64,000 nt of DNA. It comes from Hypericum androsaemum. Lineage: Eukaryota > Streptophyta > Magnoliopsida > Malpighiales > Hypericaceae. The stretch is taken from NCBI GenBank assembly GCA_963995505.1, contig OZ023184.1:18226228-18290227 (forward strand). Reading direction: 5' to 3'. Shown here piece after piece: positions 59,913 to 61,159 of this stretch. The position numbers were made by a program, and so were the translations under genes. Position 1 is the stretch's first letter. Every line of letters begins with the position of its first letter. A model generated the notes under the pieces. That model had not been told where the DNA came from, ran no database searches, and was given only the letters and a program-made list of their open reading frames with translations.

Positions 59913-61159
59913 AAAAATTAAGAGAAAAGTCCACTTTAGTACCCTGTGGTATCGACCAAAATCACTTTAGTATCCTGTGGTAAAAAACCGATCAATTGAG
60001 TCATACTTATTCCAATTAACATCAAAAAGGGCCTCGGGCAGCTGCCCGGAGCTGCCCGACCATGTGGAACAGCCACATCACCAAAAATTGATGATGTGGC
60101 GCCACATGGACTCTCTCCCACTTCCCCTCTCTTCTCTTTCCTCCTCCTCCTCTTCTTCTTCTTCTTCTTCTTCTTCTTCCCCTCTCTCACCTCTCGCCTT
60201 CCTCCATAACCCAATATTCTCCTCGTAAAGGAAAAATGTACGGAACTACGATGATGGCCGCCCTAGAGAACCTTAGGCGACAGCTTCTAGACGACAATGT
60301 TACTGATCCCCCGACGACACCCGCCAGCTCCCCATCGGACGACAGCTTCAGCGACCTCCTACTCGGCGAGAGCTGGGGGGAGCTACCGCTGAAGGTGAAC
60401 GACTCCGATGACATGATCGTGTACAGCGCCCTGGCCGACGCGGCCAGCTCCGGCTGGGTCCCGCCTCAAGAAGACGATCCTCCCAGGACAGAGCCGATGG
60501 GGTTTGTCGAGGCGGCGGCGAAGTACAAGGGCGTGAGGAGGCGGCCGTGGGGGAAGTACGCGGCGGAGATAAGGGACCCGAAGAGGAACGGCGCGCGGGT
60601 GTGGCTCGGGACCTATGACACACCCGACGGCGCAGCGATGGCTTACGACCGCGCCGCTTTCGAGATGAGGGGGTCCAAGGCCAAGCTCAACTTCCCCCAC
60701 CTTATCGAGTCGAATGTGGCCGGCGCCTGTGACGGAAGGGTGACGTCACGGAAGCGGGGCTGCCCCGCTGCGCCGTCGGTGGTTGATTGTTACGATCACG
60801 GAGGCTACTGCCCGCTGTATCTGCCGGAGCCAGAGTCCAAGAGGTTGTTGGGTTATGGAGGAAGGCGAGAGGTGAGAGAGGGGAAGAAGAAGAAGAAGAA
60901 GAAGAAGAAGAGGAGGCGGAGGAAAGAGAAGAGAGGGGAAGTGGGAGAGAGTCCACGTGGCGCCACATCATCAATTTTTGGTGATGTGGCTGTTCCACAT
61001 GGTCGGCAGCATTCGGGCAGCTCCGGGCAGCTGCCCGAGGCCCTTTTTAATACTAATTGGAATAAGTATGACTCGATTGATCGGTTTTTTACCACAGGGT
61101 ACTAAAGTGATTTTGGGCGATACCATAGAGTACTAAAGTAGACTTTTCCCAAAAATTAA
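59913..61159 (+). mobile_element. Pack-MULE-like element carrying an ERF gene
   Basis: Inverted repeats 59922-60214 (293 bp) and 60848-61150 (303 bp), highly similar throughout: GGTACTAAAGTGATTTTGG-type end words, GGGCCTCGGGCAGCTGCCCG, GATGTGGCGCCACAT and a GAAGAAGAA tract. The flanks are a perfect 9-bp direct repeat, AAAAATTAA, at 59913-59921 and 61151-61159. The 633-bp centre holds an AP2/ERF gene and no transposase. Long inverted repeats plus a 9-bp duplication define Mutator-like elements; a cellular gene inside makes this a Pack-MULE-type structure. Similarity of both arms suggests recent activity. Confidence 0.82.
60236..61105 (+). CDS. AP2/ERF transcription factor within a Pack-MULE-like element
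   Basis: Intronless frame of 289 residues encoding one AP2/ERF DNA-binding domain (about 97-154): YKGVRRRPWGKYAAEIRDP, RVWLGTYDTPDGAAMAYD and FEMRGSKAKLNFPHL. The Ala and Asp that mark the ERF (GCC-box) subfamily are present (AAEIRD, WLGTYDT); the domain looks like group IX (ERF1/ERF2 type), a class of ethylene, jasmonate and defence regulators. An acidic N-terminus (DDSFSDLLLGESWGELPLKV) could be an activation region. From residue 205 the protein is read from the right inverted repeat: a run of nine lysines and arginines, then unrelated tail to the stop, ending FFTTGY. A normal group IX protein would not carry this tail. The start lies 21 bp inside the captured part, so the leader and promoter come from the left inverted repeat. 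It could be expressed, chimeric or dead; the frame is intact. Confidence 0.85.
   Translation: MYGTTMMAALENLRRQLLDDNVTDPPTTPASSPSDDSFSDLLLGESWGELPLKVNDSDDMIVYSALADAASSGWVPPQEDDPPRTEPMGFVEAAAKYKGVRRRPWGKYAAEIRDPKRNGARVWLGTYDTPDGAAMAYDRAAFEMRGSKAKLNFPHLIESNVAGACDGRVTSRKRGCPAAPSVVDCYDHGGYCPLYLPEPESKRLLGYGGRREVREGKKKKKKKKKRRRRKEKRGEVGESPRGATSSIFGDVAVPHGRQHSGSSGQLPEALFNTNWNKYDSIDRFFTTGY

What the first reader, a model, noticed from the sequence alone, without database searches (positions are those of the whole stretch)
59913..61159. An intact ERF gene sits inside a Mutator-like element and borrows its terminal repeat as coding sequence
The 293/303-bp inverted repeats and a perfect 9-bp flank (AAAAATTAA) are seen directly. 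The ERF start codon is 21 bp after the left repeat, and residues 205-289, including a lysine/arginine run, are read from the right repeat. So leader, probable promoter and C-terminus of a defence-type transcription factor are all transposon sequence. Gene capture by Mutator-like elements is known; an intact regulator with a terminal-repeat-encoded basic tail would be a notable chimeric gene.
Basis: partly seen in the sequence, partly recalled or inferred. Interest (0 to 1): 0.88.

Follow-up and report, generated by a model that had tools for sequence, protein, structure and literature searches.

The report
Jumping gene carrying rewired ERF regulator
A family of jumping DNA elements in this plant genome carries most of an ERF regulator gene, likely copied from a gene on another chromosome, at three separate sites, and at all three the reading frame runs on into the element's own end repeat, so the predicted protein would bear a new, strongly basic tail spelled by transposon DNA.

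Summary
Window 59913-61159 is a Pack-MULE: long inverted repeats (93% identical), a perfect 9-bp duplication, and paralogous target sites without the insert. The genome has 2,623 matches to this repeat family's end and three full ERF-carrying elements (C5 = window, C7, C10), each with its own 9-bp duplication and the same two junctions. A likely donor stands on C1: a 239-codon ERF13-like gene, 97% identical, without the repeats. The capture kept 203 codons, including the whole AP2 domain, lost the donor's acidic last 35 residues and gained 86-92 element-encoded residues that include a Lys/Arg run. So the ERF is not intact: it is truncated and fused. All three frames are open. Among the copies 10 of 24 changes are replacements (neutral simulations P 0.026-0.042), but P is 0.25 once four changes of uncertain polarity are dropped, so constraint is only hinted at. 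The distal tail is not conserved, and repeats of this family are often stop-poor outward, so the tail may be a by-product. Expression is untested; a leader-to-tail hairpin could hinder translation. New variant of a known kind.

The parts
59913..59921 (.). left 9-bp target-site duplication AAAAATTAA
   Evidence: the joined site is found without the insert at dispersed relatives
59922..60214 (+). left terminal inverted repeat; last three bases CAA (60212-60214) are shared by repeat and donor (microhomology)
60114..60213 (+). pyrimidine-rich inner part of the left repeat (93% C/T), possible leader or core promoter (inferred)
60091..60228 (+). upstream open reading frame that a long leader would contain
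60215..60235 (+). donor-derived 21-bp leader
60236..60844 (+). ERF13-like coding part taken from the donor, 203 codons
60521..60676 (+). AP2 DNA-binding domain, residues 96-147
60845..61105 (+). element-encoded C-terminal tail, 86 codons and stop
60884..60934 (+). Lys/Arg run, residues 217-233, read from the GAA/GGA microsatellite of the repeat
60845..61150 (-). right terminal inverted repeat
61151..61159 (.). right 9-bp target-site duplication AAAAATTAA

Best explanation
This is a Pack-MULE, a non-autonomous Mutator-type DNA transposon, that likely captured the first 203 codons of an ERF13-like gene now on C1, was likely spread by transposition to C5, C7 and C10, and is predicted to encode an ERF whose C-terminus is read from the right terminal repeat. 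Shown: the repeats, the 9-bp duplications, paralogous target sites without the insert, three copies with the same two junctions, the C1 gene without repeats, and three open frames. Inferred: capture by template switching at 3-4 bp microhomologies; movement by a transposase supplied in trans; transcription from the inner left repeat, because the donor's upstream region is absent. Predicted product: the donor's N-terminus and complete AP2 domain with an acidic 35-residue tail (pI 4.1) exchanged for a basic one (pI 10.7), which would favour nuclear entry and raise DNA affinity. Repeats of this family are often stop-poor on the outward strand, so captured coding sequences would often be extended into such a tail.
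For: Perfect 9-bp duplications, different at each ERF copy (AAAAATTAA, TTTTTTATA, AAACAAAAA). 2,623 family ends, control 0. Interior 97% identical at C7, C10 and C1; next best 78% over 302 bases and 84% over 194. C1 has no family repeat in its 3.6-kb locus and encodes 239 aa whose end resembles ERF13-type ends (Trp in the last 20 aa of 65 of 120 listed homologs, 12 of 120 in a control segment). Same junctions in all three copies, with shared CAA and CCTC. Empty paralogous sites. AP2 domain modelled at pLDDT 88-94 over residues 101-150 and matching 1gcc at 0.8 A over 59 columns. 10 of 24 changes among copies are replacements against 14.6-15.0 expected (P 0.026-0.042).
Against: No RNA or protein evidence. 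Without four changes of uncertain polarity the selection test gives 10 replacements of 20, P 0.25. The distal tail is not conserved among copies. Open outward frames are common in the family: 27 of 49 arms, so the open tail needs no selection. A transcript with both repeats would fold into a long hairpin (289 of 314 leader bases), and a long leader has upstream start codons. No transposase gene with these ends was found at the 30 MULE loci looked at.
Confidence: 0.85

Rival explanations
1. Same capture, but the ERF part is a silent passenger or a small-RNA source: transcripts reading both repeats fold into a hairpin, and small RNAs silence the family and perhaps the C1 gene, with no chimeric protein made.
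For: 289 of 314 leader bases pair into the right repeat in a full-length transcript; the distal tail is not conserved; the open tail is common in the family; the constraint signal is weak (P 0.25 without four uncertain changes). Pack-MULEs are reported as siRNA reservoirs in maize (PMC13317346, passages).
Against: All three ERF frames are open; replacements are fewer than expected in the full set of 24 changes (P 0.026-0.042). A start site in the inner repeat would leave little hairpin (31 of 46 leader bases from 60190). Absence of stops alone is uninformative (probability about 0.5).
Confidence: 0.55
2. Same capture, and the chimeric ERF is a working, selected regulator.
For: dN/dS about 0.18-0.27 between copies; P 0.026-0.042; rates measured in the repeats predict 28.9 replacement or stop and 17.4 synonymous changes against 10 and 14 seen; AP2 domain complete.
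Against: P 0.25 without four uncertain changes; rates of the repeats may be raised by conversion; one replacement, V100M in C7, falls in the AP2 domain at a column invariant in 29 aligned sequences; no expression data.
Confidence: 0.25
3. The C1 gene is derived from an element copy that lost its repeats, not the donor.
For: Direction is not fixed by identity alone.
Against: C1 continues on both sides of the junctions with its own leader and a C-terminus of ERF13 type, while the element junctions fall at the repeat edges.
Confidence: 0.03
4. Assembly artefact or chance repeat around an ordinary ERF gene.
For: Long repeats can be misassembled.
Against: Three loci with different flanks, perfect and different duplications and private substitutions; target sites without the insert.
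Confidence: 0.02

Closest known systems
Pack-MULEs of rice, tomato, maize and Arabidopsis (PMC3310237, PMC4858842, PMC13317346; passages seen)
   Same: Non-autonomous MULE, long repeats, 9-bp duplication, captured host gene part, donor elsewhere, several copies, about 1.2 kb; promoters reported in the repeats.
   Different: Carries a complete DNA-binding domain from its own start codon, and the frame is finished by the terminal repeat; the passages seen do not describe that.
Ssk-FB4 of Drosophila and KI-MULE of Arabidopsis (PMC8277862, passages seen)
   Same: Protein-coding gene captured by a MULE-like element and multiplied.
   Different: Not transcription factors; there Ssk-FB4 has peptide and selection evidence, here there is none of that strength; KI-MULE is called likely not functional.
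dm-W of Xenopus (PMC9250109, abstract and outline seen)
   Same: Transcription-factor DNA-binding part joined to a C-terminal coding stretch that arose from a noncoding part of a DNA transposon; there it raises DNA binding.
   Different: hAT-10 in a frog, a resident exon in a settled gene, tested at the bench; here the whole gene is inside the element.
ERF13-like proteins, group IX ERFs (group name recalled)
   Same: Acidic N-terminal motif and AP2 domain; 74% identical to AtERF1 in the domain.
   Different: The natural C-terminus is replaced by the repeat-encoded tail.

Membership tests
Mutator-like element (MULE) | long terminal inverted repeats (100-500 bp) | tested here: met
   293 and about 303 bp, 93% identical
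Mutator-like element (MULE) | 9-11 bp target-site duplication | tested here: met
   perfect 9 bp here and in 22 of 26 family elements; two have 8 of 9, one has an incomplete end, one ran off its locus
Mutator-like element (MULE) | autonomous relative with MULE transposase and the same ends | tested here: inconclusive
   the genome has at least 150 MULE-transposase matches, but none of the 30 loci looked at, with 1.5-kb flanks, carries the family end
Pack-MULE | non-autonomous element with a host gene part inside | tested here: met
   ERF part, no transposase; 97% identical gene on C1 without family repeats
Pack-MULE | moved after capture | tested here: met
   three copies with the same junctions and different duplications
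AP2/ERF transcription factor | complete AP2 domain | tested here: met
   Pfam AP2, profile positions 2-54 of 54, 57.1 bits against a cut-off of 33.3; fold match 1gcc
AP2/ERF transcription factor | binds GCC-box DNA and regulates genes | not testable with these tools
   needs the bench
Expressed chimeric gene | transcript and protein | not testable with these tools
   no RNA or peptide data on hand; no protein like residues 226-289 was found (5 candidates, none at E <= 1)
Expressed chimeric gene | purifying selection | tested here: inconclusive
   P 0.026-0.042 on all 24 changes, 0.25 on 20

The most novel reading that the evidence does not exclude
A mobile transcription-factor gene: the element spreads an ERF that stays under selection inside the transposon, is driven by one terminal repeat and uses the other as a ready-made polybasic C-terminus that raises DNA affinity, so one stop-poor repeat serves as promoter at one end and protein tag at the other for whatever gene it captures.
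Probability: 0.18. Interest if true: 0.82.

Novelty: new variant of a known kind. Interest (0 to 1): 0.58.

Why it matters
Protein-coding Pack-MULEs are described as rare (PMC8277862, passages), and whether captured genes become working regulators is an open question. Here a likely donor, three open copies and a clean swap of an acidic for a basic tail on a DNA-binding protein make the question directly testable with RNA data, more accessions and a GCC-box assay. The wider point, that a terminal repeat that is stop-poor outward extends captured frames into a common tail, applies to a family with 2,623 end matches in this genome.

Tried and rejected
Empty site inside the window: the local repeats at 59.5-59.9 kb align across the junction only at 69-71% over about 87 columns; too weak alone, replaced by dispersed relatives. 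Autonomous partner: none of 30 loci carries the end; two 16-17-base matches in L074 (E 0.16 and 0.56) are chance level; only 30 of the 150 places listed were looked at. Proteins with the distal tail: none. Species: not identified; a BURP protein of the window is at best 67% identical to a Dovyalis protein, with other eudicots close behind. The structure model of the tail is of low confidence apart from a helix at 216-233 and is not used. Poisson P of 5e-5 from rates of the repeats is not relied on, because it ignores error in those rates. Empty sites of the C7 and C10 copies: not obtained, searches unanswered. Papers on a repeat-encoded tail on a captured regulator: searches listed none that I recognised as such; two key Pack-MULE papers (Hanada 2009, Zhao 2018) are not held.

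Full report
Observation. AAAAATTAA stands at 59913-59921 and 61151-61159. The repeats are 93.0% identical over 301 columns. The plus-strand frame 60236-61105 has 289 codons and one Pfam domain, AP2, E 2.2e-15, residues 96-147.

Family. The window lies on contig C5 of a 385-Mb plant genome. The left repeat gave 44 matches at E <= 0.001; 2,760 candidates were found and only 40 scored. A 30-base pattern of the outer end matched 1,320 forward and 1,303 reverse places at up to one mismatch; the reversed control matched none. The 30 loci fetched hold 27 different elements, since three are seen from both ends; one (L013) had no partner end in reach. Of the other 26, 22 have a perfect 9-bp duplication, two (L018, L020) have 8 of 9, L002 has an incomplete left end and L012 runs off its locus. 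Interiors differ: L003 carries the 5' part of a UBA-domain gene (PF14555, E 7.5e-13); others carry unidentified sequence or low-complexity expansions.

Three ERF elements and a likely donor. The 635-base interior matches C7, C10 and C1 at 97%; the next matches are 78% over 302 bases and 84% over 194. C5, C7 and C10 have both repeats and different perfect duplications. C1 shows no family repeat in its 3.6-kb locus and encodes 239 residues. The three elements share the same two junctions; repeat and donor share CAA at the left and CCTC at the right. Microhomology at junctions is reported for animal Pack-TIRs and ascribed to template switching (PMC8277862, passages seen); the mechanism here is inferred.

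Empty sites. The C5 flanks joined at the duplication matched dispersed copies of another repeat; 15 of the 42 listed matches run at least 15 bases past the junction (300 candidates, 40 scored). Four were fetched and aligned: none has the insert. At the target place C2 and C15 carry AAAAATTAA once, C6 differs from it by one base and C11 by two. These are paralogous, not orthologous, sites.

The chimeric frame. The elements keep 203 codons (the donor has one more Asp codon, 204) and lose donor residues 205-239. The donor tail is acidic (pI 4.1) and ends SSWVINSQIFLIE, like SPWTLGDQFWII-type ends of homologs; Trp is in the last 20 residues of 65 of 120 listed homologs and in 12 of 120 at -60 to -40. 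The element tail has 23 Lys/Arg and 9 Asp/Glu (pI 10.7), and the predicted pI of the protein goes from 5.4 to 9.2. The predicted proteins have 289 (C5), 295 (C7) and 292 (C10) residues. Five to nine Lys, four Arg and KEKRGEVGESPRGAT are in all three; then C7 is shifted by a one-base deletion, and C10 parts from C5 after HGR. The distal tail is therefore not under a common frame constraint.

Why the tail is open. Of 49 repeat arms from 25 elements, 27 have an outward frame open for 60 codons or more, read from 280 bases inside the end; inward 0 of 49; mononucleotide shuffles of the window arm reach this in 6%. Six of the 49 arms belong to the three ERF elements. An unrelated interior (L015, L016, copies of each other) reads into the same KKKKRRRRKEKRGEVGESPRGATSS stretch, L016 with one substitution. 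The open tail is thus a common property of the repeat and no evidence of selection by itself.

Selection. dN/dS (NG86) is about 0.18 (C5-C7), 0.21 (C5-C10) and 0.27 (C7-C10). Of 24 changes among the copies, 10 are replacements and 14 synonymous. Simulations that keep mutation type expect 15.0 replacements or stops (P 0.028), with CpG status 14.6 (P 0.041 and, repeated, 0.042), with CG/CHG/CHH context 15.0 (P 0.026). Rates measured in the repeats, microsatellites left out, predict 28.9 and 17.4 (conditional binomial P 0.032). Against this: four changes, all synonymous, have a donor base other than the inferred ancestral one; without them 10 of 20 are replacements and P is 0.25. The four are real differences among the copies, so I keep them in the main count, but the signal is weak. 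Absence of stops alone has a probability of about 0.5. One replacement, V100M in C7, lies in the AP2 domain, at a column invariant in 29 aligned sequences.

Expression. The C1 gene has TATA-like motifs upstream, the nearest at -84; 59922-60235 has none by the same patterns, but 60114-60213 is 93% C/T. MULE repeats are reported to hold promoters that drive Pack-MULE interiors (PMC3310237, passages seen). A full-length transcript would pair 289 of 314 leader bases into the right repeat (MFE -832 kcal/mol); from 60115 it is 105 of 121, from 60190 31 of 46. Start codons at 60062, 60091, 60094 and 60106 precede the ERF start. A useful start site would therefore lie in the inner repeat; this is inferred.

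DNA binding. The domain aligns over residues 96-159 with AtERF1; the AlphaFold2 model has pLDDT 88-94 over residues 101-150 and matches 1gcc at 0.8 A over 59 columns, 74% identical. Mean pLDDT of the whole model is 60.3; the tail is of low confidence apart from a helix at 216-233.

Known or new. Pack-MULEs are well known. [quoted passage not shown] rice MULE-derived genes with intact frames are catalogued in PMC4858842 (passages). The closest analogue of the domain swap is Xenopus dm-W (PMC9250109, abstract and outline). Seven searches listed nothing that I recognised as a captured regulator with a repeat-encoded C-terminus; key papers are not held, so this is no proof of absence. I file it as a new variant of a known kind.

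Noticed in passing
window 36662-36798 and 1137-1174: Further stretches like the outer part of this repeat (about 75% over 135-146 bases, and 82% over 38), so the family or a relative is present elsewhere in the window.
   Followed up: no
window 42899-44758, 46274-49876, 55649-57652: Two BURP-domain genes of polygalacturonase beta-subunit type, and between them what looks like a third copy in pieces with other ORFs inside.
   Followed up: partly
window 26996-27139: snoR135 H/ACA snoRNA, 130 bits.
   Followed up: no
window 59281-59921: The element sits at the edge of another dispersed repeat with locally repeated units; it supplied the empty sites.
   Followed up: partly
G000:C1:27462125-27465495: Four family ends in a row on one strand, about 1,110-1,120 bp apart, as in a tandem array.
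   Followed up: no
L017-L030 interiors: A second group of elements with interiors of long GA/GC-rich low-complexity expansions with long open frames.
   Followed up: no
L003 (C4), element at 607-1784: Sibling element with the 5' coding part of a UBA-domain gene starting at its ATG.
   Followed up: partly
L005, left flank of the C7 element: An open frame ending AWNMAGKLGMTCDAATGQVQNKVFRPS lies just outside the C7 insertion, so that copy may sit beside a gene end.
   Followed up: no
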